Positions 16,464 through 51,157 of a stretch of 64,000 nucleotides of DNA are shown piece after piece. Numbering within the stretch: position 1 is the first letter of the stretch; each line of letters opens with the position of its first letter. The notes beneath the pieces are model-generated. The model was given only the letters and a program-made list of their open reading frames with translations, was not told the DNA's origin and searched no databases. Both the position numbers and the translations under genes were made by a program. The stretch is from a virus: the IMG/VR virus record IMGVR_UViG_3300045972_000791, positions 1 to 64,000 of that record; one strand, 5' to 3'.

Positions 16464-16685
16464 TTAAAAACAACGTTGGATTTCATCCGTAAATACAACT
16501 AACATCTCAGTATGACCGAAAGATTTTTTAAATTTAACAGCTATATTTTCAGTACCATCTGATAATGGAATCGTTGACATAACTTCACCTTTAAAATTAT
16601 GACATTTCATTAAACCAAGCATTTCATCTGTAAATCTAACCTTATCACCAGTTCTAAAACTAGCTGATTTCTGTGCAGTTGTCAT
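16464..16685 (-). CDS. small SH3/KOW-like protein, 73 residues
   Basis: Sequence GDKVRFTD ... FKGEV ... IAVKFKK is typical of an SH3-barrel or KOW-type strand pattern, but the match is weak. GGAGAAAGGA precedes the ATG, located within the end of the beta-like gene (26-base overlap). Function unknown. Confidence 0.5.
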   Translation of the reverse strand: MTTAQKSASFRTGDKVRFTDEMLGLMKCHNFKGEVMSTIPLSDGTENIAVKFKKSFGHTEMLVVFTDEIQRCF

Positions 16686-18123
16686 CTTTGAAAAATCCTT
16701 TCTCCTTGAATTCTATGAAGGGTGTAAAAGTTCCAGTCAATCCTGGATCGCCCGCTGATGCTGATGCAAGACCCATTTTTCCTATATACGATGGATGAAC
16801 ACCGCGGTATTTAGGGGAAATATCATTCTTAGAACCATCAGCCAATGACTGTGGACCACGGAATGAATATTTAAGAGCGCAACCAAACAAGTCTAAGTCG
16901 TTCACAAGGTTACTATATCTAAGAAGTTTATTACCTTGTAATTTCTTTATTACAAATCCAGGTTTTATATTCTTAAATATAGATTTCATATGTTTGAGAG
17001 TTACCGTTTTGTTATTCAATAGACGATAAGTGTTTTCAGAGAATCTCATAAGAATGGGGTGAATAAGATACTCATTCATTCTCATTCTCTTATTACATAG
17101 ATCCATACTGTCTGACTTAGATAAAGTATCATAGTTCATTTGCATAAAACGCATAATTGCAAATACATCAGCTTTATCTTCATCTGGAATGTCAATAAGA
17201 TTCTTACGAGTACAGTCGTCTAATACACGTTCTAAGGATATCATAACTCTTTGTGCTTTATCAAATTGAGAGTTAGTATTCTTAGTAAAGTATCTACCAA
17301 GCTTCTTCAACCAGAACTCAGTTGATTCAACTTGTTCCCTTATAAGTCCTTTGTTAGTACTAATAATTTCATAAAGTGATACTATAAAAGATGCACTAAA
17401 TGAATTGTCAGGTATATCATTCAGACATACGATCCTAACATTCTTACCTGCTTTAAATGTGGTGTATCTCGATTCATCTACATCTACATCGCCATCATCT
17501 GGAAGGAGTACATCCACATAAGCATCCATTTTGAAGTATTCTATTGTTTTACTTAATCCAAACTTACTTAGATAATAGTGAAGAACATTCCTTCTGTTCT
17601 TAAAGATATCTAATGTCATGAGTCTTCCAGATATTTCTTCTCCAGTTACTGATTCTATTGATATAATCTTGTCAGTACGAAATACTATAGGCATCAATAG
17701 TGTCTTTAGAGAGAATGTCTTACTTGTTACATATGTTGCTTTATCTATTACCTGCCAAATAGAGAAGTATTTACTACCATCAATAAGATAGTAAAAGTTA
17801 TCAACTAGAGCAGGGAATAGCAACTTTAACTCTACATCTTCTGTCTCATCAAGCTTAGTTAGTTTGAATTTCATTTTGATTAATTGATGACGACTTTCTT
17901 CAATCTTATACCTAAAATTGAACTCGTTCGCAATTTCTGTCTCATCAGTTATCAATTCACAGCCAGTAAACTTAATACCTTCGATTACTTCCAATGCTTT
18001 GCTAACATCCTCTAAATATGATAGGATGTTATCCTTCTTACGATAATTCATAATAAAATCATGGTTGAACTGCTCAGGGTTCTGACTTTGGTAGTGGTTA
18101 TACATCTCCTTTAAAACCGTCAC
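16660..18123 (-). CDS. RNA polymerase beta subunit-like N-terminal half
   Basis: The last ~60 residues read RGVHPSYIGKM and then GDPGLTGTFTPF, which lines up with the bacterial beta stretch RDVHPTHYGR ... EGPNIGLINSL, including the preceding SLADG / SALGPGG region. The N-terminal region (VELKLLFPALVDNFYYLIDG) also fits the beta strand that ends in an 'inGte' turn. At 487 residues it stops where the first half of beta stops; the second half with the catalytic lysines is not in this window. Split beta subunits are known from jumbo-phage virion and non-virion RNA polymerases. Start is GTG at 18123, six bases after AGGAGGTTTC, with an overlapping ATG-TGA. Assignment is by eye. Confidence 0.5.
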   Translation of the reverse strand: MTVLKEMYNHYQSQNPEQFNHDFIMNYRKKDNILSYLEDVSKALEVIEGIKFTGCELITDETEIANEFNFRYKIEESRHQLIKMKFKLTKLDETEDVELKLLFPALVDNFYYLIDGSKYFSIWQVIDKATYVTSKTFSLKTLLMPIVFRTDKIISIESVTGEEISGRLMTLDIFKNRRNVLHYYLSKFGLSKTIEYFKMDAYVDVLLPDDGDVDVDESRYTTFKAGKNVRIVCLNDIPDNSFSASFIVSLYEIISTNKGLIREQVESTEFWLKKLGRYFTKNTNSQFDKAQRVMISLERVLDDCTRKNLIDIPDEDKADVFAIMRFMQMNYDTLSKSDSMDLCNKRMRMNEYLIHPILMRFSENTYRLLNNKTVTLKHMKSIFKNIKPGFVIKKLQGNKLLRYSNLVNDLDLFGCALKYSFRGPQSLADGSKNDISPKYRGVHPSYIGKMGLASASAGDPGLTGTFTPFIEFKEKGFFKDDNCTEIS

Positions 18124-21884: not shown

Positions 21885-22688
21885 ATGAGAAAATATGAGT
21901 CTATAATTGGTAAACAATTTAATAGATTAACTGTATTATCTGAAGACAAACTTGTTGGTAAACAAAGATATTTCAATTGTAAATGTGAATGCGGTAATAT
22001 TACCTCAGTCCGTATGTCTAGATTAAAAAATAAAAACAAGCCAGCTATATCTTGTGGTAAATGTAAAGATAGTATTATGGAAATAAAATTAGTTGGAAAG
22101 AAATTTGGGATGTTAACCATATTATCTCTTGATTTCAATAGTCCTATGAGTGGGATTAGAGGTGGTCCACCGAGAAGAGTTATTTGTAAATGTGAATGTG
22201 GAACAATAAAATCAATACCGTTATATTATTTAAAAGATACAAAATCTCCCACATTATCATGTGGATGTTATAGAGATTTTATAAAAACTAGTCATGGAAT
22301 GAGTAAAACACGTATATATAGTATTTGGCAGGGAATGAGAGATAGATGTAATAATCCAAAAAATGTTTCATATCCTAATTATGGTGGTAGAGGTATATCA
22401 TATTTAGATAAGTGGGAAGATTTTGAAGAGTTCTATAGAGATATGGGTGATCCTCCAACTGATAAACATGAACTTGATAGAATTGATAATGATAAACATT
22501 ATACAAAGAAAAACTGCCGATGGTCTACTCATAAAGAACAGCAGAATAATAAACGTAATAGTCATTTTATTGAATTTAATGGAAAGAAACAAACTCTTAC
22601 TCAGTGGTCAGAAGAAACTGGTATAAAAAAGGAAACATTACGATATCGGTTATATAATAATTGGCCACTGGAAAAGGCTCTTTCATGA
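21885..22688 (+). CDS. zinc-ribbon HNH-type homing endonuclease (long form)
   Basis: 267 residues. Two tandem zinc-ribbon modules (each GK-x-F-(N/G)-x-LT(V/I)L then CKCECG; the second ends SCGC), then the HNH-like core (NYGGRGISY, DMGDPPTDKHELDR, NCRWSTHKEQ), then the HTH tail (TLTQWSEETGI ... LEKALS). Good GGAGAGAG ribosome site. The stop overlaps the start of the terminase gene (ATGA), so the terminase is probably translated by coupling to this gene. This is a free-standing homing gene next to the intron-interrupted terminase. Cleavage site not predictable here. Confidence 0.85.
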   Translation: MRKYESIIGKQFNRLTVLSEDKLVGKQRYFNCKCECGNITSVRMSRLKNKNKPAISCGKCKDSIMEIKLVGKKFGMLTILSLDFNSPMSGIRGGPPRRVICKCECGTIKSIPLYYLKDTKSPTLSCGCYRDFIKTSHGMSKTRIYSIWQGMRDRCNNPKNVSYPNYGGRGISYLDKWEDFEEFYRDMGDPPTDKHELDRIDNDKHYTKKNCRWSTHKEQQNNKRNSHFIEFNGKKQTLTQWSEETGIKKETLRYRLYNNWPLEKALS

Positions 22689-23437
22689 TAGATCATCTTA
22701 CCAAAAATGTATCTTTTTTAAAGATGCACAGATATCTTAAAGAAAAAGGTATTAAAAATAATAAATTCTTTCTAAAGCTAAATGACCCTGATCTGTTAGG
22801 AGTAGATCCTCACTCTCCAGATCTAACTAAAATACAAAAAGCAAAGATTCTAAAAGAAATTATAGGTAATCCATGGTATTTTTATAGATCCGTTATAATG
22901 ATTCCCGTCCCAGGTGGTAACAAAGCCTTTGAATTGCATCGTGGTAACTTAGCTATGCTATGGGCAATGCATATGAATATTAAATCATGTGTACTATTGC
23001 CACGACAGAACTATAAGACTATTTCTACAATATGCGGTCTTCTATGGATATACTACTTTGGAACCACTAACAGTCAGATGATCTTTAGTAATAAAGAGCT
23101 AAAAGACTCAAGACTTAACCTTAAACGATTTAAAGATATTAAAAATCTTCTTCCAAAGTATCTAGTTCATGAAGATAAATTGGATAAAGATAATATTGAC
23201 TCTGTGGAACATAAGAAAAGAGGAAATGCTGTAGGAATTCTATCTGCTCCTAGAGACGAAGACCAAGCCGATAGGATGGGAAGGGGTATGACCGTTCCCA
23301 TTGTATGGTATGACGAATTTGCATTCTTAAAATATAACTCTGTAGTATATGCCTCAGCTGCACCTGCACAAGGTCAAGCATCTATAGAAGCTGCAAATAA
23401 TAAAAGACCATACTTTACTACAGTTACTACTACGCCT
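22685..23437 (+). CDS. terL: terminase large subunit, exon 1
   Basis: ATPase half of the DNA-packaging motor. The ATG at 22685 overlaps the preceding stop (ATGA) and has only a weak GGAAAAGG site. Residues 103-112 hold the Walker A-like segment VLLPRQNYKT (Tyr where Gly is usual before Lys); Walker B VPIVWYDEF is near 204-212, with the catalytic Glu. The exon ends after codon CCT (Thr-Thr-Pro) at 23437. Joined to exon 2 it gives Thr-Thr-Pro-Asn-Asn-Ile-Asp, which continues the terminase family pattern, for a total of 641 residues. The open frame runs on into the intron to 23536 but those residues do not belong to the protein. Confidence 0.85.
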
Positions 23438-24516
23438 AAATACTATTGGGCCGTCTGGATGAGAGTTCAGATGATAATCTCTTTAATTGCTGGAACATCC
23501 CTATGGGAAAATCAGCAGCGAAAATTCTACTACTAACATATCATTAACAAAATTGATGTGGAGGTAGTTATGAGAAAAACTCATGAAACATTTGTATCTG
23601 AAGTATTTCAATTACGTGGTAACGAATATAAGGTTATTAGTAAATACACTACTAATCGAAATAAAATTCGTATGCTACATAATAAGTGCGGTATGGAATA
23701 CGAAGTTGCACCTACTAATTTTCTAGGCTCTCCAAAGAAGAAAGGTATAGAATGCCCATTTTGTACAGGTGGAGGTTCAGGTGCAGATAGACAACGAATG
23801 TCTGAATGGTTTAAGATTAAGGTAAAGAATAAAGTAGGAACAGCATACACAGTTATAGAAGAATATAAAGGTACTCATAAACCAATTGATATTCTTCATA
23901 ATGATTGTAACAGAATTACTAAAGTTAGCCCAACTAATTTCTTAAAGAATACAGCTTATACAAGGTGTGTTCATTGCCAAAGAGAAGAAAATATCTCCCA
24001 AGGTGAGAAGATAATTAAAGATTGGTTGGAAACTAACGATGCTGATTTTACCTTTCAATGGTTTTGTCCAGAATTAAATAAAGAACAAAAAAATCATCGA
24101 TATTCATTTGATTTTAGAGTGGAGCTGAATGATGGTTCTTTTGCACTTATAGAGTATAATGGTGAATTGCACTATAGACTATGGCGAGGAAATAGTGAAT
24201 CTGCTGTTAAAAAATTAGAAAATACTCAAAAAAGTGATATTCTTAAAAAGGAATATTGTCAAGATAATAATATACCTTTTCTGGTTATTCCATATACAAA
24301 TCTTTATCAAATATCAACTATTCTAGATAAGTTTTTCCAAGAATGACGTTCAACGACTAGAGCGAAAGCTCGTACACTACAAGCTAATGGTAGTGGAAAT
24401 GGGAGACATCCTAACTCTATGAGAAGGATGAAGATATAGTCTACTCTGCACGGTAACATGCAGCTGCTAGGAAATTGCTAGCGGGATAGAAGTTGCGACT
24501 CTATTCGAATACAAGG
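23438..24516 (+). ncRNA. group I intron in terL with homing endonuclease frame
   Basis: Self-splicing intron of 1079 bases. P1: exon CGCCT pairs with GGGC(C)G, last exon base T opposite G. P4: TTGCTG 23487-23492 with CAGCAG 23513-23518. Core near the 3' end: CAACGACTAGAG with P7 strand GACTA (24355-24359) pairing TAGTC (24437-24441), a GAGC-GAAA-GCTC hairpin (24360-24371), the CATCC/GGATG P8 stem, the AAGATATAGTC signature of T4-type introns, and P9 hairpins (CTGCA/TGCAG, GCTAG/CTAGC). The last intron base is G at 24516. The endonuclease gene occupies a peripheral loop. Class looks like IA; the exact boundary needs cDNA. Confidence 0.85.
23570..24346 (+). CDS. intron-encoded homing endonuclease, Vsr-like (EDxHD) type
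   Basis: 258 residues. N-terminal two repeats of a Cys-containing DNA-binding module (LHNKCG.EYEVAPTNFL and LHNDCN.ITKVSPTNFL, each followed by a CxxC pair), then a C-terminal PD-(D/E)XK-like nuclease: SFDFRVELND, IEYNGELHYRL, and KKEYCQDNNIPFLVIPY, matching the EDxHD / Vsr-fold homing endonuclease pattern. GGAGG sits five bases before the chosen ATG at 23570; an upstream GTG is weaker. It would make a break at the intronless terminase allele. Confidence 0.75.
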   Translation: MRKTHETFVSEVFQLRGNEYKVISKYTTNRNKIRMLHNKCGMEYEVAPTNFLGSPKKKGIECPFCTGGGSGADRQRMSEWFKIKVKNKVGTAYTVIEEYKGTHKPIDILHNDCNRITKVSPTNFLKNTAYTRCVHCQREENISQGEKIIKDWLETNDADFTFQWFCPELNKEQKNHRYSFDFRVELNDGSFALIEYNGELHYRLWRGNSESAVKKLENTQKSDILKKEYCQDNNIPFLVIPYTNLYQISTILDKFFQE

Positions 24517-25689
24517 AATAATATTGACGTATTAACTGGTTTATATTGTAAGACTGAGATTATGGATAAAGCATGTCCATTTATCGAAGAGATGTATGAT
24601 TGGAGTAGGGAAAAGGTTGTTACATACCTAGATAAAAACTCAGAAAATGACTTTGTATATATCGAATACTCTTATAAAGAATTAGGTAGAAGTGAAGCTT
24701 GGTTTAGGACGCAATGTCGTCAGTTGCTTGGAGATACGCTTAAAATCAAACGAGAAATACTTCTTGAATGGACTAAAGCCTCAGATACTTCTCCATTTAC
24801 AGAAGATCAACTTCAGGCTATAGATGATAAACTACTAGAAGAGGTTGGAACTATAACATTAAGAGAATACTATACTCTCCATCTTATAGATTTCATAAAG
24901 AAAGATAAAGTATATCTAGTTGGTCTTGACCTTGCAGGTGGTCTTGATAGAGATGAATCAGCTATAGTTATCGTTGATCCAGATACTTCTCTACCAGTTG
25001 GTTTCTTTCATAATAATAAAATAGATACTGATGAACTATATCTATTAGCTCAAGAGCTTATTGAAAGCTACTTACCTAGATCAATTCTTATACCTGAAAG
25101 AAACTCTTATGGTTTACCATTCTGTCAACGATGGATGAAATCTAAATTAGAGAAAAATTTATTCTTTCATTCAAGAGAGAAAGCAGAAAAAAGAGTTGGT
25201 CAGGCAACATCTAAAACTAGACTTAAAGTATATGGTATCGATACTACTGCTAAGTCTCGTGATTTAATGATTGACATTCTTAAAAAGGATGTTGTAGAAC
25301 ATCCGGAGTTCTTCAGAATAAAGAAGCTATATGATCAAGTTCGCAATCTTGAGAGAACTAAGAATGGAAAGATAGAACACTCTTCACATAGTCATGACGA
25401 TATTCTATTTGCATATTTAATGTGTAGATATGCCATGTGGTATCATATGGATATCTTAGGTAAATATTTCCTAAAGGTAAATATCCAGAGAAGAAATGTA
25501 TCTCATATGGAAATAGTTGGATCTAATAATGAAAGAGCTGTAGAAAGTAGAGAATTATTAATGCAACCTATAATGCAACCAATTGAAAGTCCCTTAAGTA
25601 CAATGACAGCTACAGGTGGACTTAAATTGGCAAAAAGATCTAACTTAATAAGCGTAATTAATTTAAATAATGATGATGGAGGAAGATAA
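24517..25689 (+). CDS. terL: terminase large subunit, exon 2
   Basis: Nuclease half of the packaging motor, 390 residues. Begins AAT AAT ATT GAC directly after the intron's final G. RNase H-like nuclease acidic residues: LVGLDLAGGLDRDESA (first Asp), ILIPERNSYG (Glu) and SHSHDDILFA (third Asp), each in the normal order. The upstream part (VYIEYSYKELGRSEAWF) is the usual hinge region before the nuclease. It ends exactly before the next ATG at 25690. A frame open back to a TTG at 24493 is intron RNA and should not be used. Confidence 0.85.
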   Translation, partial: NNIDVLTGLYCKTEIMDKACPFIEEMYDWSREKVVTYLDKNSENDFVYIEYSYKELGRSEAWFRTQCRQLLGDTLKIKREILLEWTKASDTSPFTEDQLQAIDDKLLEEVGTITLREYYTLHLIDFIKKDKVYLVGLDLAGGLDRDESAIVIVDPDTSLPVGFFHNNKIDTDELYLLAQELIESYLPRSILIPERNSYGLPFCQRWMKSKLEKNLFFHSREKAEKRVGQATSKTRLKVYGIDTTAKSRDLMIDILKKDVVEHPEFFRIKKLYDQVRNLERTKNGKIEHSSHSHDDILFAYLMCRYAMWYHMDILGKYFLKVNIQRRNVSHMEIVGSNNERAVESRELLMQPIMQPIESPLSTMTATGGLKLAKRSNLISVINLNNDDGGR

Positions 25690-36036: not shown

Positions 36037-36711
36037 TTAGAAGTCGATAGCTATAAAGCTCTGTTTGGATGAATACGACTTAGATTCGCATTCTATTTCA
36101 CACAATAGTTTGTTATCCAAAATATCATATAGAGTTATGTGGTGCTTAGCATCTTCTTCAGGTTTTACAAAAAGTTTTTGAGCAAGTCTAAGCTTCCAGT
36201 GTTTACTAGTAGTACCATATTCATTAACAAGAATATGTTTTTTAGTAAGAATTACATCTGCAAATTCGGATTGACCACATTCTTCATAGAACCCATCTAT
36301 ATCTCTATATTCGCAAAGTATTTCACCATTATCTTTCAAGTTATTATACATCGTTTCAATTCTTCGTATATTTTTCAAATACGACTTATCAGTAAGCGAT
36401 GTATATAATGGATATTTTTCACCGTGTATAACTAGATTTTCATCAAAGCTAATACCAGTCAATGGTTCTTCTTTCTTATTCTTAAAGACTTGAAATAACT
36501 CATCACTATTTACAGATACAATTTTAGTATCTAAACCTTTATGAAAGTCAATTAGTGTATATGAATAACATTCATCTGGAAGAATATATGCTTTTCCTCC
36601 AAATGCATACCACATCTTATTATTAAATAATAATTTTTTAGCTAGTTGATTCATATTATTTAAATTTTTAAGATGATCCTTAAATGTAATGACCTTTTCT
36701 TTTTTAGCCAT
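36037..36711 (-). CDS. hypothetical protein, 224 residues
   Basis: Starts MAKKEKVITFKDHLK. I use ATG at 36711 because GGTGG lies in the preceding gene's end; an upstream in-frame ATG is less well supported. Mixed alpha/beta, with one possible Cys-Asp pair (DGFYEECGQ), no motif recognised. Ends at a hairpin. Confidence 0.55.
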   Translation of the reverse strand: MAKKEKVITFKDHLKNLNNMNQLAKKLLFNNKMWYAFGGKAYILPDECYSYTLIDFHKGLDTKIVSVNSDELFQVFKNKKEEPLTGISFDENLVIHGEKYPLYTSLTDKSYLKNIRRIETMYNNLKDNGEILCEYRDIDGFYEECGQSEFADVILTKKHILVNEYGTTSKHWKLRLAQKLFVKPEEDAKHHITLYDILDNKLLCEIECESKSYSSKQSFIAIDF

Positions 36712-37000
36712 TTTTTCCACCCATAACATTCTCGCTATCTAATAAATCAATTATTTTTTGTTCAGAAGGGTCTTCACACCAAAAGGCATTTTTCAGCTTA
36801 AATATTTCTTTCTCTAAACGGACAATGCGATTAGAAGCGCATAACACTGTTCTAATACATTTAGCACTTCCATCTTTCATAATAATACTTATTGATCCGC
36901 AGTTATACTTTACTGAATGGGTATATTTATTACCCCCTATTGTAAGGGGGCTTTTCCTGATTTCTAATAGCTCAGATTTACATGATGGGCATATATCCAT
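36704..37000 (-). CDS. small zinc-ribbon protein, 98 residues
   Basis: N-terminal CPSC and a later NCGS cysteine make a plausible partial zinc site, then a helical C-terminus. Starts at 37000, overlapping the stop of the polymerase N-half (TAATG), with GGAGG inside the polymerase's last codons. Function unknown. Confidence 0.55.
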   Translation of the reverse strand: MDICPSCKSELLEIRKSPLTIGGNKYTHSVKYNCGSISIIMKDGSAKCIRTVLCASNRIVRLEKEIFKLKNAFWCEDPSEQKIIDLLDSENVMGGKNG

Positions 37001-38739
37001 TACACAACCTCCAATAGTTCTTGTAAGTCTGGTAAATTAAAATATTTTTTACCAGTAGCAATAAAATCTTTAGCTTGAATAGAATCAATAATTTTAGGTA
37101 TTTCATCATTGAGTTTATTCTCTAATTTTAGTTGACTTTTATTATTATATACATATACATCCTCAAACTGTTCAACTAAGAAAGCCTTACCAATCTGAGT
37201 AAATGAATCAATATTAAAACCTTGAATAATACTTGGATAGAGAGATGCAAGGTCAAGGTCACAAGTCTTTTCAAATATCTTATTTGATTTGATACCTAAG
37301 ACTGGAATGCCTGTATGTGCAAGAAGTTTAGGATTAGCAACAAATGCACCACGAAACTTTTTCTTTGCATCATCTTTATCTTCATCTTCTTTAGATTTCC
37401 ATTCATCACTACCATAATCCTGATTACGATTATTAGATAGCACGTATCCTTGGTCTCTAAAGAATCTATCAGCCATATTACGAAGACATATTGTCTTTGT
37501 CATAGCTTTGTTCATACGAGTTTCAGTCATCAAACTCAACTGATAAATAAGATCAGTATCACCAATCTTCTTTTCAATCAAGTAACATCCAATAACGTCC
37601 ATCGCATTATATTCCATAAACTTTAAGAAGTTAGAGTATGGAAATTTCTTCATATCATCAACAACTTCATCCTTACTCATACTAAGTTCTTCAGTAAGTA
37701 CTGCATCTAACATGTATGAGTCTTTTTTCTGCATTGACTTACGAATAACTGCATACTGAATCATTTGGTCAAGAAATATTACATCTGAAGTAATCTGTAA
37801 CTGATCTTTCTTTTCAGATATATCTTTCGCTCTAGTATCAGTATAGTAATATACCTGTTTATAATCTACTTCTTTTGGACACATTATAAGAGCAGGAATA
37901 CCGCCTAGAATCTTTATTCTATTTATAACAGTTTGACCGTCAAATGAAAGGTTCCATGCATGAAGTATATCTGGTTTACATCTTTCATTAAGAAGCTTAA
38001 AGAATGCTTTAATAAGGTCTAATTCTTTATCAAAGAACTCAATTTCTATCTCTAGATTTGGACACTCATTTTTAAACTTCTTTTGAATAGTTTTAGTATA
38101 CTTTTCAATTTGAGTATCTTCAAATATCCCAATCAATGTATTCTTTGGATTCCTCAGAACGAATTGATATAATATATTCTCTTGTTGATCATAATATCCT
38201 ATAAGGTTGATAGGACTAGGTGCTTCTTCAGCAATAGGAAAACCTGGTATATTGGATGAGTCAACCTCGATATCCCAAAAACCTTTAGTAAGAGATGCAG
38301 TTAGATCAACTTCAGACTTATATTTAGATAGATATCTACTTATAGTGTGATCACTAATATCCACATCTGAACCATGTAGAATTGGATCAAGGTGTAACTG
38401 TTTCAACTTACCAAAGTGTTTCTCTTGCAGACATGCCTCATAAAAGTCCATCTCACCAAGATATTTAGCTATCTCACGCATATACTCCCAATACTTACAG
38501 GTGACAGGAAATGTATCTTCAATAGGTACAAATAACGGTGGTGGATCCAAATACTGGTCTACTTTATTCTGTTTAGTGACTCTAAAAGTTATAGTAGGAT
38601 CAGCTATGAATCTCATTCTCTTTTCACCATCGATTTTTTCAACTATATATAAACCTGTATGTTTCAGAGGTAATTTATTTCCATCTGAATCTTTACCGCC
38701 TCTTACTGTTAAAACATTGATCAACTGACGAACTGGCAT
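37000..38739 (-). CDS. family B DNA polymerase, N-terminal half (exonuclease plus palm motif A)
   Basis: 579 residues of a replicative polymerase. 3'-5' exonuclease motifs: GFWDIEVDS (Exo I), ILHAWNLSFDGQ (Exo II) and YNAMDVIG (Exo III). Palm motif A is DLDLASLYPSII near residues 495-506, with the first catalytic Asp. It then stops about 77 residues later; motifs B and C are absent here and are encoded on the opposite strand at 42194-44116. No intein motif at the end. AAAAGGAG precedes the ATG. The two chains must associate to make an active enzyme. Confidence 0.9.
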   Translation of the reverse strand: MPVRQLINVLTVRGGKDSDGNKLPLKHTGLYIVEKIDGEKRMRFIADPTITFRVTKQNKVDQYLDPPPLFVPIEDTFPVTCKYWEYMREIAKYLGEMDFYEACLQEKHFGKLKQLHLDPILHGSDVDISDHTISRYLSKYKSEVDLTASLTKGFWDIEVDSSNIPGFPIAEEAPSPINLIGYYDQQENILYQFVLRNPKNTLIGIFEDTQIEKYTKTIQKKFKNECPNLEIEIEFFDKELDLIKAFFKLLNERCKPDILHAWNLSFDGQTVINRIKILGGIPALIMCPKEVDYKQVYYYTDTRAKDISEKKDQLQITSDVIFLDQMIQYAVIRKSMQKKDSYMLDAVLTEELSMSKDEVVDDMKKFPYSNFLKFMEYNAMDVIGCYLIEKKIGDTDLIYQLSLMTETRMNKAMTKTICLRNMADRFFRDQGYVLSNNRNQDYGSDEWKSKEDEDKDDAKKKFRGAFVANPKLLAHTGIPVLGIKSNKIFEKTCDLDLASLYPSIIQGFNIDSFTQIGKAFLVEQFEDVYVYNNKSQLKLENKLNDEIPKIIDSIQAKDFIATGKKYFNLPDLQELLEVV

Positions 38740-38839
38740 GTGTTCTCCTTTTGTTCAGTATATACGATACTATGTTGTCTATATTTTTAAATTAAACATT
38801 TTATTATGTTATTCATTTTATGGTGTGAGAGAGAAAACT

Positions 38840-39562
38840 ATGTCAGATGACAATCTTTTTGAAGAAATGTTAACTGCTATGGAAAGGGAAGGACAAGCTA
38901 CTGAAGAACTGTATACTGAGTTAAAAGAGCATTATGATACTATAAAGCTTAATAGTCGTAGGATGCAGGGCAGCTTAACATTCCTTTCCAAACAAGCCGA
39001 AAATCTTATAGCTTTAAGACAGGCTAATCAACAAATTATTAAAGCAATGGTGGATATGAAACACAAACAGTTTGGTAATACTATGAAGACTAAGATGTTA
39101 TCTGTTAAACAAGAAACGGCTGATGAAGATGGTATTCCATTTAAAGTTGTTAAATATCTTATAGATGCACTTAAAGTAGACTCTAATAATATAATGAGTA
39201 TAGAGGGTGAATTAGTCAATAACCCTATTACTGATGATGATAGATTATTAGAAGGTAGATTAAGTGAATTGTCTGATGAAGAGACAACTGAAGACAGCAT
39301 CATTCCAGCTGAAATTGATGAATCTACTATTGAACTAGTATGTGATGAACTAGGTAGTTATCATATAGTTGCTAATGGATATATTATATGTGATGATGAT
39401 TATGATCTACCTAAAGATTCACCTACCTATGATGTAGGTAAGCATGGGGAGTTGAGGGCTTTTAATTCTGATGGAAAAGAGATTAAAATAGTCAGGTCTG
39501 ATTCATTAGTATTTAGAGAGCCTGAAGAGGATGGTGAAATAGATGAGGAAGATGATGACTGA
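38840..39562 (+). CDS. acidic hypothetical protein, 240 residues
   Basis: Starts MSDDNLFEEMLTAM with GAGAGAG upstream; the longer open frame back to 38738 overlaps the polymerase start and is rejected. Helical N-terminal half, acidic C-terminus (EEDGEIDEEDDD). Divergent from the polymerase N-half. Function unknown. Confidence 0.55.
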   Translation: MSDDNLFEEMLTAMEREGQATEELYTELKEHYDTIKLNSRRMQGSLTFLSKQAENLIALRQANQQIIKAMVDMKHKQFGNTMKTKMLSVKQETADEDGIPFKVVKYLIDALKVDSNNIMSIEGELVNNPITDDDRLLEGRLSELSDEETTEDSIIPAEIDESTIELVCDELGSYHIVANGYIICDDDYDLPKDSPTYDVGKHGELRAFNSDGKEIKIVRSDSLVFREPEEDGEIDEEDDD

Positions 39563-40199
39563 AGGATCTCTCCCAGAATTCTTATGGAGGGGTAAAGCTG
39601 CAGATATTATAAAGAATACAAAAATAGTAACTAAAAATGAATTGATATCTTTTATGGAACCTGGAGATTTAATCTGCTCCAATACTCCTGATAGCAAGAT
39701 AGTATCATACATGCATAATCTGTCTGGAATGTCAACTAAGATGGCTATGGGTATTCCTTACTCTTCAATTAAATTAGTTGCAACTGACGGTATGTTAATA
39801 GGTTATGGTCTTAGGAAATCTCTTCCAACTAATGTAGGTCTTGATAAGACAACTATTAGTGGATATGTTAATAAAGCTAGAGAGATTATTCTATTAAAAC
39901 CAAAAGTACCCAAAGAAGATAGACTCGATGTTATTAAATGGATGGAAGAAAGATTAGGAGTTCCATTTAATGTGAATATGCTTAATAGATCATTATTAGC
40001 TAGAGTAGTAAATAGCAAACCCAGTGATGATAAAGTGAAAGCTAGATTAAGTGAGAAAGTATCACTTTTCTGTTCTAACATAATTGCATATGCATTCTTA
40101 TCCACAGGTCATAGATTAGTTGTGAATCCAGAGAATGCTTGGCCTGTAGATTTTATAGAATCAAACAATATTACACCAATAAGTCGAATACATCAATAG
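39543..40199 (+). CDS. possible permuted NlpC/P60 (YiiX-like) peptidase
   Basis: 218 residues. It has PGDLI near 40, a His shortly after (YMHNLSG), and a late FCSNIIAYAF, the order of a circularly permuted papain-like fold with His before Cys, as in YiiX-type proteins. Starts inside the previous gene; the exact ATG (39543, 39552 or 39555) is uncertain, with GAGGAAG favouring the later ones. The next gene is holin-like, which would fit a wall- or lipid-linked role. Weak match. Confidence 0.4.
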   Translation: MRKMMTEGSLPEFLWRGKAADIIKNTKIVTKNELISFMEPGDLICSNTPDSKIVSYMHNLSGMSTKMAMGIPYSSIKLVATDGMLIGYGLRKSLPTNVGLDKTTISGYVNKAREIILLKPKVPKEDRLDVIKWMEERLGVPFNVNMLNRSLLARVVNSKPSDDKVKARLSEKVSLFCSNIIAYAFLSTGHRLVVNPENAWPVDFIESNNITPISRIHQ

Positions 40200-40207
40200 G
40201 AGGGATT

Positions 40208-40528
40208 ATGAACAAAGTAGCTCAATATGTAATAGATCGTCTTAAAGAACCATCTTCATGGCGTGGTCTTATTATGGTAGGTACATCTACTGCAAGTATG
40301 TGTGGTGCAAAATACGATCTATCCACAGATCAAATTGTAGCAATTATTACTACTGGTGTATTCGTATCTGGTATGGTAGGTAGTTTAATTCCAGATAAAA
40401 TGAAAGCATCAGGTAAAGGTGTGATTGAAACTGTAACTGACAGTATCAAAGCAGTTGGTGATTCAGATGACGCAGTTAGAGATAATTCTGTAGGTATTAA
40501 AGTAATTGAAGTATTTGATAAAAAGTAG
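40208..40528 (+). CDS. small membrane protein, holin-like
   Basis: 106 residues. The pattern PSSWRGLIMVGTST followed by a hydrophobic segment, DQIVAIITTGVFVSGMVGSLIPDK, is like phage holins that have two membrane segments and an IPDK/TPDK end. ATG at 40208 is preceded by AGGAGGG; an earlier in-frame ATG lies in the preceding gene. A soluble acidic tail follows. Would permeabilise the inner membrane at lysis if confirmed. Confidence 0.5.
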   Translation: MNKVAQYVIDRLKEPSSWRGLIMVGTSTASMCGAKYDLSTDQIVAIITTGVFVSGMVGSLIPDKMKASGKGVIETVTDSIKAVGDSDDAVRDNSVGIKVIEVFDKK

Positions 40529-40598
40529 TTACCGTATTCAGTGGATTTTTTATTTAATATTATTTATATAGAATAAATAAAAATCCATTGGAGGAATT

Positions 40599-40736
40599 AT
40601 GCAAATCAAAGACCTTGCTGGCCGTAAAAATGTTGTAAAAATGGTTAAATATATATGTCATAAGTGTGGTGTAGGTGGTCTCTTTCCCAAGGTTAAGAAA
40701 GTTGTGACCTGTAGTTATTGTGGTCACGCATCTTAA
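40599..40736 (+). CDS. tiny zinc-ribbon protein, 45 residues
   Basis: MQIKDLAGRKN..., with CHKC at residues 20-23 and CSYC at 38-41: a complete four-cysteine zinc ribbon, like ribosomal or RNA polymerase ribbons. GGAGGAATT lies six bases before the ATG and a strong terminator follows. Short but with a clear ribosome site, and coding by composition. Confidence 0.7.
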   Translation: MQIKDLAGRKNVVKMVKYICHKCGVGGLFPKVKKVVTCSYCGHAS

Positions 40737-40756
40737 CCATCTGTTTCAAATACATT

Positions 40757-40797
40757 ATGCTCTATTCCAATTAAGGAATAGGGCATATTTTTTTTTT
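40757..40797 (+). terminator. intrinsic terminator with T10 run
   Basis: 12-bp stem ATGCTCTATTCC (one G-U) and a 6-base loop followed by ten T. Ends the rightward operon from 38840. Confidence 0.82.
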
Positions 40798-41608
40798 AAT
40801 CCTTACCATATAATGCTTCTTCTACGGACCATCCTCTTTTTAGACGACCACGAATAGTGCTACGATGTATACCTACTTCTTCTCCCCACATAGCTAATGA
40901 TTGAATTTTTCCATTATACTCAATATTATGATTGTTAGATCTATTATTTTGCTGTTCTTTCATTGTAGACCATTTACAGTTCCTCTTTGTATAATGACCA
41001 TTACTTTCTATTCTATCTAATGTATGTTTATCTGTAGGTGGATCACCCATATCCTTATAGAATTCTATAAAATTTTCCCATCTAACTGCATAAGATACAC
41101 CTTTTCCACCATAATTAGGATTATTAGAGTTACATCTATCTTTCATCATAACCCAAATATGATAAATACGAGTACCCTCCATTCCATGTTTTGTATTGGC
41201 TTTAGATAACATTTCTTTTCCATAGCATCCACATGATTGTGTTCGTCCAAGATTTAAACGACTTCCATCTACTTCTTTAGTATTTCCGCAATCACATTGA
41301 CACATATAATGCCAATGTAAATTTTTTAATATAGTGGGATTTAATACTATTAATCTCCCAAATCTTCTACCAATCATTTTACTATGGGTTCTAATGTTTC
41401 TTGCTGTATTTTCTTCTTTAATTCTTTCTTTATTAAAGCAACCACATGATGATGTTTTACCGGATCTAAGACGAGTTCCATTATATTCTGATTCATTTCC
41501 ATTACAACTACATCTACATTTATAATACAATTCCCCATATCTGTTATTAGCTTGTTTTAAAACAGTTAACCTTCCAAATACTTTTCCAATCATATTTATT
41601 TTTGCCAT
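40796..41608 (-). CDS. zinc-ribbon HNH-type homing endonuclease (long form)
   Basis: 270 residues. Two zinc-ribbon modules (KVFGRLTVL ... CRCSC ... SCGC; RRFGRLIVL ... CQCDCG ... SCGC), HNH-like core (NYGGKGVSY, DMGDPPTDKHTLDR, NCKWSTMKEQ), HTH tail (LAMWGEEVGI ... SVEEAL). Start chosen at 41608 (GGAGGGTACAAT upstream) over an in-frame ATG 10 codons earlier. Lies between the two halves of the polymerase. Family and motifs clear; cut site unknown. Confidence 0.85.
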   Translation of the reverse strand: MAKINMIGKVFGRLTVLKQANNRYGELYYKCRCSCNGNESEYNGTRLRSGKTSSCGCFNKERIKEENTARNIRTHSKMIGRRFGRLIVLNPTILKNLHWHYMCQCDCGNTKEVDGSRLNLGRTQSCGCYGKEMLSKANTKHGMEGTRIYHIWVMMKDRCNSNNPNYGGKGVSYAVRWENFIEFYKDMGDPPTDKHTLDRIESNGHYTKRNCKWSTMKEQQNNRSNNHNIEYNGKIQSLAMWGEEVGIHRSTIRGRLKRGWSVEEALYGKD

Positions 41609-41644
41609 ATTGTACCCTCCTAATAAACTGTTACTCAAGAGGAA

Positions 41645-41680
41645 GTTAGTTCCCCATACTAAAAAGTATGGGGAACTAAC
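41645..41680 (-). terminator. terminator, stem GTTAGTTCCCCATACT
   Basis: Perfect 16-bp stem, AAAA loop, between the basic-protein gene and the homing endonuclease on the minus strand. Isolates the endonuclease from upstream transcription. Confidence 0.78.
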
Positions 41681-41686
41681 ATAAGA

Positions 41687-42037
41687 TTAATGCATAGGGG
41701 AATGTCTACGTGTAAGATATACACGAACTTGTGCCTTGGCCTTCTGTCCATACTTGCGTTGTATCGCAGCACGGAAGCTTTTCATTTTAAGATAGTGGAA
41801 CAACATTTTAGAATAGAGAGGATCTCCACCCTGTTTTGCAATCAAGTTAGCTGCACGAGCAACCATACGCTTGATCTTAAGTTCTTTCTTGACTTTGTAC
41901 TTACCAGTGATCATGCTACCTTCACCAAGCATTTCAAGGCTTTTGCAAGCGATGTCATGTGCCTGATCAAGAATTGCAAGACTCTCACTGGTGAATTCAA
42001 ATTCCTCATTAGCATTAGCTTCATCATTCAGAAACAT
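41687..42037 (-). CDS. small basic protein, 116 residues, probably highly expressed
   Basis: Acidic first 25 residues, then a strongly basic, Arg/Lys-rich helical remainder (KKELKIKRMVARAANL ... RAAIQRKYGQKAKAQVRVY). Codons use more C/G at third positions than the neighbouring genes. AAAGGAGAT precedes the ATG. Nucleic-acid binding or virion DNA binding is suggested by charge only. Confidence 0.6.
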   Translation of the reverse strand: MFLNDEANANEEFEFTSESLAILDQAHDIACKSLEMLGEGSMITGKYKVKKELKIKRMVARAANLIAKQGGDPLYSKMLFHYLKMKSFRAAIQRKYGQKAKAQVRVYLTRRHSPMH

Positions 42038-42134
42038 GTGTATCTCCTTTACCTATTGTTTTTATGAGACCTATATTGTCTCGGTGCGCAACACAGTGCG
42101 TCTAATAGATTGTTATAGTTTATAATGAATTGTT

Positions 42135-42144
42135 TATATTATAC
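42135..42144 (+). promoter_or_regulatory. promoter-like element TATATTATAC before polymerase C-half
   Basis: TTTATATTATACCCTTAAAA about 50 bases upstream of the ATG at 42194 resembles the ACATATTATACTTTAGA element at 6843. The match is partial. Confidence 0.3.
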
Positions 42145-42193
42145 CCTTAAAATATTTGACAACAGATTATCACTATTCGAAAAGGAGTAATAT

Positions 42194-44116
42194 ATGGACT
42201 TTATTAATGAGTGGGCTAATCAAGCAGCAGAACAGATTGCAATTATAAAAGGTATTCCGTATGATCAAAAACTTATAAATAAAATACTAAAAGTTGGTAA
42301 GGCTCAGCTTCAGACAAAAGAGATGATTATCCATAATAATCTTACTCAGGTAGTCGAAGAAGGTACTACTGAAGATCTTTTAGATTATTATTTGGGTGAT
42401 GATAAACCTCTTATGACTGGATATGGAGTTCTTTATCAACAACATGAAGGTTCTCTCAACCTTCCAGCTAAGATGTTAGCTTATTTAGGTTCAGAACGAA
42501 AAGTAGTAAAAAAGAAAATGTTTGAACATGTAAACGACGTTGATAAAGGCATATATAATGCTTACGATACCAAACAAAAGGTTATTAAAGTTCTAGCCAA
42601 TAGCTTCTATGGTGTTATGGGTCAAAAGAGTTTTATCTTTCATAATGAGTATAATGGTCCAGCAATTACATATACTGCATATCAGATCATTACTAACTCA
42701 ATGTTATCTATTGAAGCGTTTATGGCTAATAATGTTAGATTTAAAAACTTTGATCAGATTATTCAATTTATTACTAATAGTTTAAAAACTACTCCTAGAA
42801 CTCCTATTGAACAGATAATAGGTAGTAAAAAAGTTTTTAAATGCCCTAATATAATTGAGTATTTAGTTAGTATGTCTGATTTTGATCTAACAGAAAAAGA
42901 GATAGATCTTCTAAATACCGCAGTTGGTGGATTAGTTCATGAAGAGATTTGGTTGTTATACTTTAAAAGGAATTTATTTGAATTTCTAAAACAGCCTAAA
43001 ATAATTGATATGCTAGGTGATTGTTTAGATGGAGATTTTGTCAATCCAGATGAACCACCTGAAGCAGTTAAACCTACAATAGATGCACTCTATGAATTGT
43101 TAGTAGACTATGTATCATATGACTATTTATATGAAGATCGTTTTGAACGCTCACATGAGTTAGTTAGACAAGTTATCCTTGTAGTTGATACCGATTCTAA
43201 CTTTATTTCACTAATGCCATTCTATGATTTCATGGCTGATCAATTTGATCTAGGTGACAAAGATGACAAAGAAGCATATATACCTGTGTGTAATATTATT
43301 ACTCATATATTGAGTAGATATATCCATCGTACCCTCCATCTATTTGCAAATAATATGAACCTCACAAAAGACAATCAGAAATTTCTTGCGATGAAATCAG
43401 AGTTTCTTTTTTCAAGAGTTCTTCTTACTAATAATAAGAAACAGTATGCTGCAAATATTGTGGCTACTGAAGGTAATGTTCTTGATAAACCAAAGCTTGA
43501 ATTGAAGGGTATTTCCATAAAAAAGACAGGTCTTAATAAAGCTACACGTACATATTTTACTAAAATACTTGAAGATATGATGCTCAATGCTAAAGAGATC
43601 GATATTCCTGCCATATTGAGGAAATATTGGGAGTACGAGCGTGCTATTGTGAAGGGGCTTACTGAAGACCTTTCTACACAATTTTGTACACCTGGCAAGT
43701 ACTCTAGCATAGATTCGTATAAGAACTATGCGCAGATGGATGTTGTTCGTGGTACAATGCTGTGGAATTATATGAATGAAAGTAGACCTATTGGAAATCA
43801 CAGTAAGATAAATAAAATTAAACTTAGAAGTATGACTAAAGATGAATTGAAAGAAGCTATGAAAGATTTTCCTGAAGATTTAGAAGCATTATTAGAGCTT
43901 ATGGAAAAAGATGAAGTATTTAAAAAATATGGATTAGATATTTTAGCTCTACCAAAAGATTTAGAGACAATTCCAGATTGGGTTAGACCTCTTATGGATG
44001 TTAGTACTATGGCTAGTGATATTATGAGAAATGCAATAGTTCTTCTTGAAAGTTTAGGAGTACAATTACTCACTATTAGAAGTAAGAACTACTATAGTAA
44101 TATTCTTCAGATGTAA
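42194..44116 (+). CDS. family B DNA polymerase, C-terminal half (palm motifs B and C, thumb)
   Basis: 640 residues. Contains motif B KVLANSFYGVMGQ (near 134-146), motif C VVDTDSNFIS (near 330-340; catalytic DTDS), a KKQYA segment and a thumb region with KLELKGISIKK. It has no motif A or exonuclease. The matching N-half is at 37000-38739 on the other strand. AAAGGAGT precedes the ATG. Length and motif order make the pair a complete polymerase with no missing catalytic part. Terminates at a strong bidirectional hairpin. Confidence 0.9.
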   Translation: MDFINEWANQAAEQIAIIKGIPYDQKLINKILKVGKAQLQTKEMIIHNNLTQVVEEGTTEDLLDYYLGDDKPLMTGYGVLYQQHEGSLNLPAKMLAYLGSERKVVKKKMFEHVNDVDKGIYNAYDTKQKVIKVLANSFYGVMGQKSFIFHNEYNGPAITYTAYQIITNSMLSIEAFMANNVRFKNFDQIIQFITNSLKTTPRTPIEQIIGSKKVFKCPNIIEYLVSMSDFDLTEKEIDLLNTAVGGLVHEEIWLLYFKRNLFEFLKQPKIIDMLGDCLDGDFVNPDEPPEAVKPTIDALYELLVDYVSYDYLYEDRFERSHELVRQVILVVDTDSNFISLMPFYDFMADQFDLGDKDDKEAYIPVCNIITHILSRYIHRTLHLFANNMNLTKDNQKFLAMKSEFLFSRVLLTNNKKQYAANIVATEGNVLDKPKLELKGISIKKTGLNKATRTYFTKILEDMMLNAKEIDIPAILRKYWEYERAIVKGLTEDLSTQFCTPGKYSSIDSYKNYAQMDVVRGTMLWNYMNESRPIGNHSKINKIKLRSMTKDELKEAMKDFPEDLEALLELMEKDEVFKKYGLDILALPKDLETIPDWVRPLMDVSTMASDIMRNAIVLLESLGVQLLTIRSKNYYSNILQM

Positions 44117-44117
44117 A

Positions 44118-44154
44118 TAATCTCGCATATACCTATATGGTATATGCGAGATTA
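44118..44154. terminator. bidirectional terminator, polymerase/HD-GYP junction
   Basis: 16-bp perfect stem TAATCTCGCATATACC with a TATAT loop between convergent genes. Confidence 0.85.
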
Positions 44155-45108
44155 ATCTAGACTTAATGTATACTCTTCCATAGCACTGTATAGCTCTTTA
44201 CTAATTGCCCTACCTACAAATTGATCTTTCATTATTTGTAGAGCTTCTTCAGGAGTGTGTCCTTTTCTATACGGCCTATCAGCAATTAGAGCAGAGTAAA
44301 CATCTGCAGTATTAATGATTCTAGTGTTTCGACCTATTTGATCGCCTTCTATACCCCTAGGGTATCCTCTACCATCTAGTCTCTCATGATGATCCCTAAT
44401 ATTACTTAGGATTACTTCATTAGAAATAGTCTCTTTTATATAATCATACCCAAAAACCGTATGATCCTTCATTATATCGTACTCTTTATCAGTTAAACTC
44501 TCAGGCTTATTTATAATCTCGTCAGGTATAAATATTTTACCTATATCGTGTAGTATTGCTCCTGTACCTAAGTCAGATAATTCATCGTGATCTAAATTAT
44601 ACATTCGATGAGCAAGTACTAGTGATAAGGTTACAACATGTATGGCATGAGCATACTCATATCCATTATGAACAATGATTTTACTGATTTCTTTAAATAC
44701 ATTAGGATTATTAAGACATGATGTTATTATACTATCTACCAATGTCCTACACCTATCTATATTACTACTGACTGCAATTGGGTTATTATAAATTTCAGAT
44801 ATATAGTTTGTAGATACTGTAAATAAAGCATCTATTTTCTTTGTAACTGAATAATTCTTATTTGCAACTATATTCTCTAAAACTTCTTCCGTCTGACGGG
44901 TAAAAACTTCCATATCACCATATCTTAAATATATGAACTCAGTACTAGATCTATTTAATCTCTCAATATCTCTTCTAGTAAATAATTCCCCTGCCGGTTT
45001 GTATAAGATATAATTATCTCTATTCTTTATAAAGACTGGGAAGTTTAAAGGAAAATCATCAATAAATGATGATACAAGGATACTTTTATATAAATTATCC
45101 CTACTCAC
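44152..45108 (-). CDS. HD-GYP domain cyclic-dinucleotide phosphodiesterase
   Basis: 318 residues. N-terminal ~60 residues fit the small domain that precedes many bacterial HD-GYP domains (YILYKPAGELFTRRDIERL). The HD-GYP core is complete: AILHDIGK (HD), DHTVFGY, then HHERLDGRGYPRG (the HHExxDGxGYP signature) and TADVYSAL ... RPYRK. HD-GYP enzymes hydrolyse c-di-GMP and some hydrolyse 3'3'-cGAMP. Start is GTG at 45108, six bases after AGGAGCTAAAT, with an overlapping ATG-TGA. Probably moved from a bacterial host. Confidence 0.9.
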   Translation of the reverse strand: MSRDNLYKSILVSSFIDDFPLNFPVFIKNRDNYILYKPAGELFTRRDIERLNRSSTEFIYLRYGDMEVFTRQTEEVLENIVANKNYSVTKKIDALFTVSTNYISEIYNNPIAVSSNIDRCRTLVDSIITSCLNNPNVFKEISKIIVHNGYEYAHAIHVVTLSLVLAHRMYNLDHDELSDLGTGAILHDIGKIFIPDEIINKPESLTDKEYDIMKDHTVFGYDYIKETISNEVILSNIRDHHERLDGRGYPRGIEGDQIGRNTRIINTADVYSALIADRPYRKGHTPEEALQIMKDQFVGRAISKELYSAMEEYTLSLD

Positions 45109-49621: not shown

Positions 49622-51157
49622 CTAACTCACCATATGAATAAACCTAAGTACTTCGTCAGATATAGATGATATATTGTAGCTCATTGGGAGATACTCATCT
49701 TCATCATCTACTCTTGGAAGTCTATCAAATTTATTTTTCTCAAGCGTTGCAATGAATTTGATAACAATAGTGCTGTCTGCGAGACGTTGCCCTATAAAAC
49801 TAAACTTACTGTGTATCTTTTTGTAGCTAGTACTCCTAATAAGTTCAGATATAAATTTCTTACTAGATAATGTTTCTCTGGCAATAATTTCACTATCTTT
49901 AGGAATACCAGTTAAGTAATCAGCTAGAATAGGAAGATCATGCTTATAGAGTAACTTTTCAGCAATCATTAACAGTTTTATATACTGAATTTTAGTTGCT
50001 GAATTTAAAGCCTCTTGTCTTCCCATCTCTCGTTGATATATGAGAGTTAGAATTCTTTTCTGTAAATCATTAATCTTGATACGATTCAGATAGTAACTCA
50101 ACTCCTCTGGACATATATCATAATCCAGTTCCCGAATATACTTTCGGATGATGGATTCGATATTTGCATCGTTTATCACCTTCAAGCCTTCATCATGCTG
50201 ATAGGCTTGCTCAATCCTTTCAAAAGGATTGCTTCCCTCATCAGAGTCTATATCAATTGTATTGATTGGACGATATTGGATAGGGAAGTTTTGTGTAAAC
50301 AAATACATAAGCTGATTCTTTAAAGTAGTATGAATATATGATACTATACCTCTATTATGAGCTAATTTTGGAAGTGTATCACATATTGTCTTTCTATAAA
50401 GAATACGAATAAATACATCTGGTGTTATACCTAAATTCTTTAGATAAGACCAAATGATTTTATCTGAATAGTTAGTTGCAACTACTCTAGACTCCGCTAA
50501 TTTGAATAGTTTATTCTCTAAATTCATATGACTAGGAGTAAATTTACGTAGCACTCTAAGGAATGAGCTAAAGATGAAACTATTTGTTGGATTCTCTGAG
50601 ATTGGATCTGCTGCTTTAACAAGACTAAATCTCAATTCACAAAAATCCATTATGATAGGGATAATCAGTTTTGCTGCAAAGGATGCTTTAATTACTGCTT
50701 TAGTGTGCTCTGGCTTGAATTGTAGTTCTACATTTTTAATCTTGTCATCACTGAGAGATGGTGGTTCATAGTAGATTTCCTCTATATTATCAGAGATAAT
50801 CTTAACGACTTCATCATCGATAAGTCTATCTATAGCCTGATAAAACTGCTCTAGAGTTATTTCTACCTCTTCATCACTATCAGTATCCTCTCTATATTCG
50901 GCAAATGCGTCCATATTGAGAATACCAATTATTGCAAACTTCATTTTTAGATAATTATAAACAAACGTTTCTGATCTACCACCAACATACGATATTGCTT
51001 CAGCAATTCTATCAGACATATTCCGATAGGTTTTTTTCTTGTTGAGTGGAAAATTATTAAAGTTTGTTCCCCCAGTATAACCCTTCGACATATATTTATC
51101 AAAGTGTATGATTATACCGTCCTTCTCAGATGTAGTAACAAGTAAATCCTTTGCCAT
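49622..51157 (-). CDS. large unknown protein, 511 residues
   Basis: Not recognised. It has a mostly helical body with repeated Leu/Ile heptads and charged surface (RIKINDLQKRILTLIYQREMGRQ). GGAGGAAC precedes the ATG. Ends one base before the primase start, so it is co-translated with a replication gene. Candidate for a replication or transcription factor by context, nothing more. Confidence 0.55.
   Translation of the reverse strand: MAKDLLVTTSEKDGIIIHFDKYMSKGYTGGTNFNNFPLNKKKTYRNMSDRIAEAISYVGGRSETFVYNYLKMKFAIIGILNMDAFAEYREDTDSDEEVEITLEQFYQAIDRLIDDEVVKIISDNIEEIYYEPPSLSDDKIKNVELQFKPEHTKAVIKASFAAKLIIPIIMDFCELRFSLVKAADPISENPTNSFIFSSFLRVLRKFTPSHMNLENKLFKLAESRVVATNYSDKIIWSYLKNLGITPDVFIRILYRKTICDTLPKLAHNRGIVSYIHTTLKNQLMYLFTQNFPIQYRPINTIDIDSDEGSNPFERIEQAYQHDEGLKVINDANIESIIRKYIRELDYDICPEELSYYLNRIKINDLQKRILTLIYQREMGRQEALNSATKIQYIKLLMIAEKLLYKHDLPILADYLTGIPKDSEIIARETLSSKKFISELIRSTSYKKIHSKFSFIGQRLADSTIVIKFIATLEKNKFDRLPRVDDEDEYLPMSYNISSISDEVLRFIHMVS

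What the first reader, a model, noticed from the sequence alone, without database searches (positions are those of the whole stretch)
37000..44116. Family B DNA polymerase split into two genes on opposite strands
Seen: Exo I-III and motif A (SLYPS) in the minus-strand gene at 37000-38739; motif B (ANSFYG) and motif C (DTDS) in the plus-strand gene at 42194-44116. Neither half has the other's motifs. Split PolB genes are known in T4-like phages but usually stay co-directional. A single inversion of about 37000-42193 would place the N-half stop directly before the C-half start, so the simplest history is an inversion with one breakpoint inside the gene between motifs A and B. A homing endonuclease lies between the halves. 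That the two chains form one enzyme is inference.
Basis: partly seen in the sequence, partly recalled or inferred. Interest (0 to 1): 0.85.

Follow-up and report, generated by a model that had tools for sequence, protein, structure and literature searches.

The report
Two-gene jumbo-phage DNA polymerase
This is a DNA fragment of a large bacterial virus related to phages AR9 and phiR1-37, whose replication enzyme is made as two proteins from two genes on opposite strands; that split is an old, already described trait of this virus group, and the opposite-strand layout is common in it, so the find is real but largely ordinary.

Summary
Window 37000-38739 (-) encodes the exonuclease domain and palm motif A. 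Window 42194-44116 (+) encodes motifs B, C and KxY of one family B DNA polymerase. Both genes are intact, with AAGGAG-type ribosome sites and all catalytic residues.

The inversion history is not supported. The same break occurs in AR9/PBS1, phiR1-37, BpSp, Staphylococcus SA1, Listeria LPJP1, Fusobacterium JD-Fnp4 and, in two genes, phiKZ/EL/Ea35-70. [quoted passage not shown] Of 44 other records carrying both halves, 21 have them on opposite strands, 22 on the same strand and 1 fused. phiR1-37 and seven contigs share the window's close divergent layout, including a distant clade with the same sheath/portal/N/gp152-like/C order. The layout is therefore old, and the HNH gene is not at the break.

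The two chains most likely fold together into one polymerase. This is inferred: all paired records keep both halves, the N-half palm models poorly alone, and split gp43 of phage 25 is active (PMC2988022).

Possibly new: two contigs (IMGVR 3300046542_000248, 3300025530_000275) carry an unbroken 1,270-aa version, most simply a re-fusion, though tree support is weak.

The parts
37000..38739 (-). N-half of family B DNA polymerase (579 aa): N-terminal and 3'-5' exonuclease domains plus the palm piece with motif A
   Evidence: phrog_3011 2.8e-62; 33-37% identity to AR9, SA1 and phiR1-37 N-halves; Foldseek best hits RB69 gp43, 1e-19; CAAAAGGAGAACACATG start
37231..37254 (-). motif A DLASLYPS
   Evidence: D494, D496, Y501, P502 invariant in 27 sequences
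37597..37611 (-). Exo III YNAMD
   Evidence: invariant Y377, D381
37939..37953 (-). Exo II NLSFD
   Evidence: invariant N263, D267
38260..38274 (-). Exo I DIEVD
   Evidence: invariant D156, E158
38740..38839 (.). intergenic region between the N-half and the divergent gp141-like gene
   Evidence: sequence; start of the gp141-like gene inferred
38840..39562 (+). gp141-like gene (likely start ATG at 38840), also beside the N-half in phiR1-37, G033, G034, G035 and G039
40796..41638 (-). freestanding HNH endonuclease (TTG start) between the halves, not at the break
   Evidence: phrog_374 2.7e-75
41687..42037 (-). gp152-like virion structural gene, head-to-head with the C-half as in AR9, SA1, BpSp and phiR1-37
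   Evidence: phrog_26909 1.4e-11
42194..44116 (+). C-half of family B DNA polymerase (640 aa): fingers, remaining palm with motifs B and C, thumb; with a ~140-aa family-specific stretch between motifs B and C
   Evidence: PF20286 1.9e-39, PF00136 7.2e-14; phrog_2927 4.6e-85; AF2 model pLDDT 90.5, Foldseek hits RB69 gp43 2e-9; AAAAGGAGTAATATATG start
42587..42613 (+). motif B KVLANSFYG
   Evidence: K132, N136, G140 invariant in 42 sequences
43187..43198 (+). motif C DTDS
   Evidence: D332-S335 invariant
43436..43450 (+). KKQYA (KxY motif)
   Evidence: K416, Y418 invariant

Best explanation
The window comes from an AR9/phiR1-37-like jumbo phage (multisubunit-RNAP group). Its replicative PolB is inherited as two genes, broken between motif A and the start of the fingers by an old split common to the group. 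Each half is translated separately from its own ribosome site. The two chains then associate non-covalently, so that motif A (N-half) and motif C (C-half) meet in one palm and proofreading sits on the N-half. The close divergent layout is an old arrangement of this subclade, with the C-half kept head-to-head with a gp152-like structural gene and the N-half upstream of the portal gene; it is not a new inversion. Shown: both genes, motifs, common split site, relatives' layouts. Inferred: association and activity of the two chains, and the polarity of rearrangements.
For: Same split site and 30-37% identity in AR9, SA1, BpSp and phiR1-37. All 44 other paired records hold both halves. 21 of 44 are on opposite strands; the ancestor of the window's clade is reconstructed as close-divergent. 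G033 has the window's sheath/portal/N/gp141/gp152/C order and strands; G015 has the same without gp141. The trees of the two halves largely agree (r = 0.89; 22 of 26 strong N splits recur in the C tree). Catalytic residues are invariant. The N-half palm piece models poorly alone (pLDDT 34-63 over residues 441-540) while its exonuclease domain is mostly above 90; the C-half models well. An unbroken homologue exists in two contigs. In AR9 both halves are continuously expressed (PMC5312081). Split gp43A/B of Aeromonas phage 25 co-purify and are active (PMC2988022). PMC7598289 names a split PolB as core for these phages.
Against: No direct evidence that the window's two chains bind each other; two-chain modelling was not available. 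The record is a 67-kb fragment, so another polymerase elsewhere in the genome cannot be excluded (only PolB was sought in the record). Deep branches of the tree are weakly supported, so the direction of some rearrangements is uncertain, and three strong conflicts between the N and C trees leave room for some exchange of halves.
Confidence: 0.88

Rival explanations
1. One reading: a recent inversion of about 37000-42193 broke an intact polymerase gene in this lineage.
For: The two ends would abut after un-inverting; inversions are common in the group (orientation changes at least 12 times on the tree).
Against: The identical split is present across the group; close relatives G033-G035, G039 and phiR1-37 share the divergent layout with genes between the halves; most co-directional pairs at 9-16 kb run C before N.
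Confidence: 0.03
2. The two halves are joined after expression, by trans-splicing RNA introns or by a split intein.
For: Nanoarchaeum PolB could be joined by a split intein (PMC4104785); group I introns do interrupt the halves in relatives.
Against: Each window half has its own ribosome site and stop codon. No intein domain and no intron match in 36500-44500 even at E = 1. Both junction ends align to relatives with no extra domain.
Confidence: 0.03
3. One or both halves are relics or have a separate role (for example, the N-half as a stand-alone exonuclease) and another polymerase replicates the genome.
For: The record is a fragment; the exonuclease domain models well on its own.
Against: All active-site residues of both halves are invariant; both halves are kept together in all 44 paired records; both are continuously expressed in AR9 (PMC5312081).
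Confidence: 0.05

Closest known systems
Split PolB of Bacillus phages AR9/PBS1 (AR9 BI022_gp131 + BI022_gp151)
   Same: Same split site and domain content, 35% and 32% identity, gp152-like gene head-to-head with the C-half, N-half upstream of the portal gene
   Different: Halves on the same strand, 15 kb apart, C-half first
Split PolB of Yersinia phage phiR1-37 (g170 + g167/g164)
   Same: Same split and the same divergent layout, with gp141-like and gp152-like genes between
   Different: C-half itself interrupted by a group I intron; whole block inverted relative to the portal gene; 1.8 kb apart
PF20286 'Divergent family B DNA polymerase' (phiKZ/EL/Ea35-70 type)
   Same: The C-half matches it (1.9e-39); a separate N-half gene is present in phiKZ, EL and Ea35-70
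   Different: About 20% identity; motif B degenerate in EL/Ea35-70
Split gp43A/gp43B of Aeromonas T4-like phages 25 and 44RR
   Same: PolB in two chains that co-purify and polymerise (PMC2988022)
   Different: T4-type gp43; halves separated by a seg endonuclease or an untranslated insert; split site not compared here

Membership tests
Family B DNA polymerase (two-chain) | Exo I-III and pol motifs A, B, C with catalytic carboxylates | tested here: met
Family B DNA polymerase (two-chain) | PolB fold | tested here: met
   AF2 models of both halves have RB69/T4 gp43 as best PDB matches
Family B DNA polymerase (two-chain) | polymerase activity of the assembled pair | not testable with these tools
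   needs biochemistry
Split PolB of RNAP-encoding (AR9/phiR1-37-type) jumbo phages | break between motif A and the fingers at the shared site | tested here: met
Split PolB of RNAP-encoding (AR9/phiR1-37-type) jumbo phages | sequence descent from that clade | tested here: met
   trees of N+C place the window with phiR1-37, G033-G035, G037, G039, G041, G045 (0.99-1.00 support for the group)
Split PolB of RNAP-encoding (AR9/phiR1-37-type) jumbo phages | multisubunit RNAP genes in the genome | tested here: met
   homologue of the AR9 nvRNAP beta N-part at 16660-18123 (1.6e-111) and of the AR9 nvRNAP subunit encoded at 194414-195808 at 49622-51157 (9e-39); the other subunits lie outside the fragment or were not found
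Chimallin-encoding (nucleus-forming) phages | chimallin gene | not tested
   fragment only; PBS1, PALS_2 and phiR1-37 are described as lacking chimallin (PMC10299810)

The most novel reading that the evidence does not exclude
The replicative PolB of this whole phage group has been two chains since its ancestor, the two genes were then shuffled into every relative orientation, and at least one lineage (IMGVR 3300046542_000248 and 3300025530_000275) re-fused them into one gene, a natural reversal of a gene split in a replicative polymerase.
Probability: 0.45. Interest if true: 0.45.

Novelty: new member of a known kind. Interest (0 to 1): 0.27.

Why it matters
It shows that a replicative polymerase active site shared between two chains has been stable over a deep phage radiation while gene order turned over, so coordination must be at protein or regulatory level and not through an operon. 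The fused relatives give a natural single-chain control for testing what the split costs or gains. For this window itself the finding is mainly an annotation: two genes, one enzyme.

Tried and rejected
Recent inversion: rejected from relatives' layouts. Split intein and trans-splicing introns: no sign. Homing endonuclease as direct cause of this split: the HNH gene is not at either broken end. AR9 early-promoter motif upstream of both halves: a matrix from 25 AR9 sites gave only 8 window hits above 8 bits, fewer than a shuffled sequence (14, doubled from one strand), and none near either half. IQ-TREE did not finish in time; FastTree used instead. Close relatives of the window's C-half in IMG/VR: none found.

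Full report
Check of the observation. Both ORFs exist exactly as described. The minus-strand protein of 579 aa carries Exo I, II, III and motif A; the plus-strand protein of 640 aa carries motif B, motif C and the KxY motif. PHROGs and Pfam place both in DNA polymerase families with E-values down to 1e-62 and 1e-85. Profiles built from relatives hit RB69 gp43 at residues 87-436 for the N-half and 703-770 for the C-half, with archaeal PolB residues 452-530 also matched by the C-half, so the halves are complementary. No other PolB is present in the 67,153-base record. Each gene has an AAGGAG-type ribosome site.

Relatives. tblastn against phage records gave AR9, PBS1, Goe21, BpSp, phiR1-37, Staphylococcus SA1/S6/PALS_2/MarsHill, Listeria LPJP1 and Fusobacterium JD-Fnp phages, with the two halves at separate places. 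The alignments show the same break. [quoted passage not shown] phiR1-37 has the C-half on the minus strand at 109849-112172 and the N-half on the plus strand at 113892-115622, the same divergent layout as the window.

Layout survey. 59 records were searched with both profiles. After removing duplicates and records with one half, 44 remain besides the window: 11 divergent, 10 convergent, 12 co-directional with C first, 10 co-directional with N first, 1 fused. Distances run from 0.8 to more than 200 kb; long ones on circular or fragment records are only nominal. Phylogeny of concatenated halves puts the window with G033, phiR1-37, G039, G034, G035, G045, G037 and G041, whose common ancestor is reconstructed as close-divergent. 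Gene-family synteny shows sheath(+) portal(-) N(-) gp141-like(+) gp152-like(-) C(+) in the window and, mirrored, in G033. In phiR1-37 and G034 the N-to-C block is inverted as a whole relative to its flank. G015, of a different clade, has sheath(+) portal(-) N(-) gp152-like(-) C(+); G014 and G030 keep the portion around the halves. The gp152-like gene is head-to-head with the C-half in AR9, SA1, BpSp and many others. So the layout is old, and in the AR9-type phages it is the C-half block that is flipped relative to N. Which state came first at the root is not settled.

Fused relatives. One contig (L082) has an uninterrupted frame of 1,273 aa carrying both halves, and a second contig (L239, 76% identical) confirms it. 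It has about 20 residues of linker at the place where the others are split, so nothing conserved is missing in the window's halves. In both rootings it falls among split relatives, which favours re-fusion, but the support at those nodes is poor.

Structure and mechanism. AlphaFold2 gives the C-half mean pLDDT 90.5 and the N-half 81.7. The N-half segment that holds motif A (residues 441-540) is at 34-63, while the exonuclease domain is mostly above 90. Both models have RB69/T4 gp43 as best solved match, with modest TM-scores (0.32-0.55 by query length). In RB69 the motif A and motif C aspartates bind the same metal ions (established knowledge, not tested here), so neither half should polymerise alone. 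Low confidence of the palm piece alone fits a need for the partner but is not proof. Split gp43A/B of phage 25 co-purify and have activity (PMC2988022), and both AR9 halves are expressed in the same temporal class (PMC5312081).

Other interruptions. Group I introns interrupt the halves in G030 (four), G015 and phiR1-37, and group II intron parts occur in LPJP1's N-half locus; none is found at the window's halves. These cis breaks differ from the N/C split. That introns or homing elements caused the original split is plausible (proposed for the RNAP genes of these phages, PMC7598289) but not shown.

Verdict. A real two-gene polymerase; known kind; ordinary layout for its group; the inversion history is not supported.

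Noticed in passing
L082:8126-11947 and L239:5983-9795: Unbroken 1,270-aa PolB of the otherwise split family in two independent contigs (76% identical), downstream of an SbcC gene.
   Followed up: partly
window 22661-25689 (+): Terminase large subunit in two pieces (22661-23536 and 24493-25689) with an HNH-type homing endonuclease (23558-24346) between; AR9 and phiR1-37 terminases are also interrupted.
   Followed up: partly
window 7550-8404 (-) and 9482-10282 (-): ATP-dependent DNA ligase domain and a Ku-domain protein near each other, a possible phage end-joining pair (AR9 also has Ku).
   Followed up: no
window 44152-45108 (-): HD_5 (HD-GYP-like) protein convergent with and directly beside the C-half, no PHROG match.
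   Followed up: no
L235, L236, L233: Group I introns inside PolB halves of relatives: four in L235 (G030), one in L236 (G015), one in phiR1-37, whose g167/g164 are probably one spliced gene; group II intron parts in LPJP1 (L231).
   Followed up: partly
C-half residues about 180-320 (window 42731-43153): About 140 residues between motifs B and C that are absent from T4-type PolB models but present across the divergent family, including the fused form; role unknown.
   Followed up: no
L136-L138, L140: T4-type PolB relatives split into tandem co-directional N (547-567 aa) and C (367-405 aa) genes.
   Followed up: no
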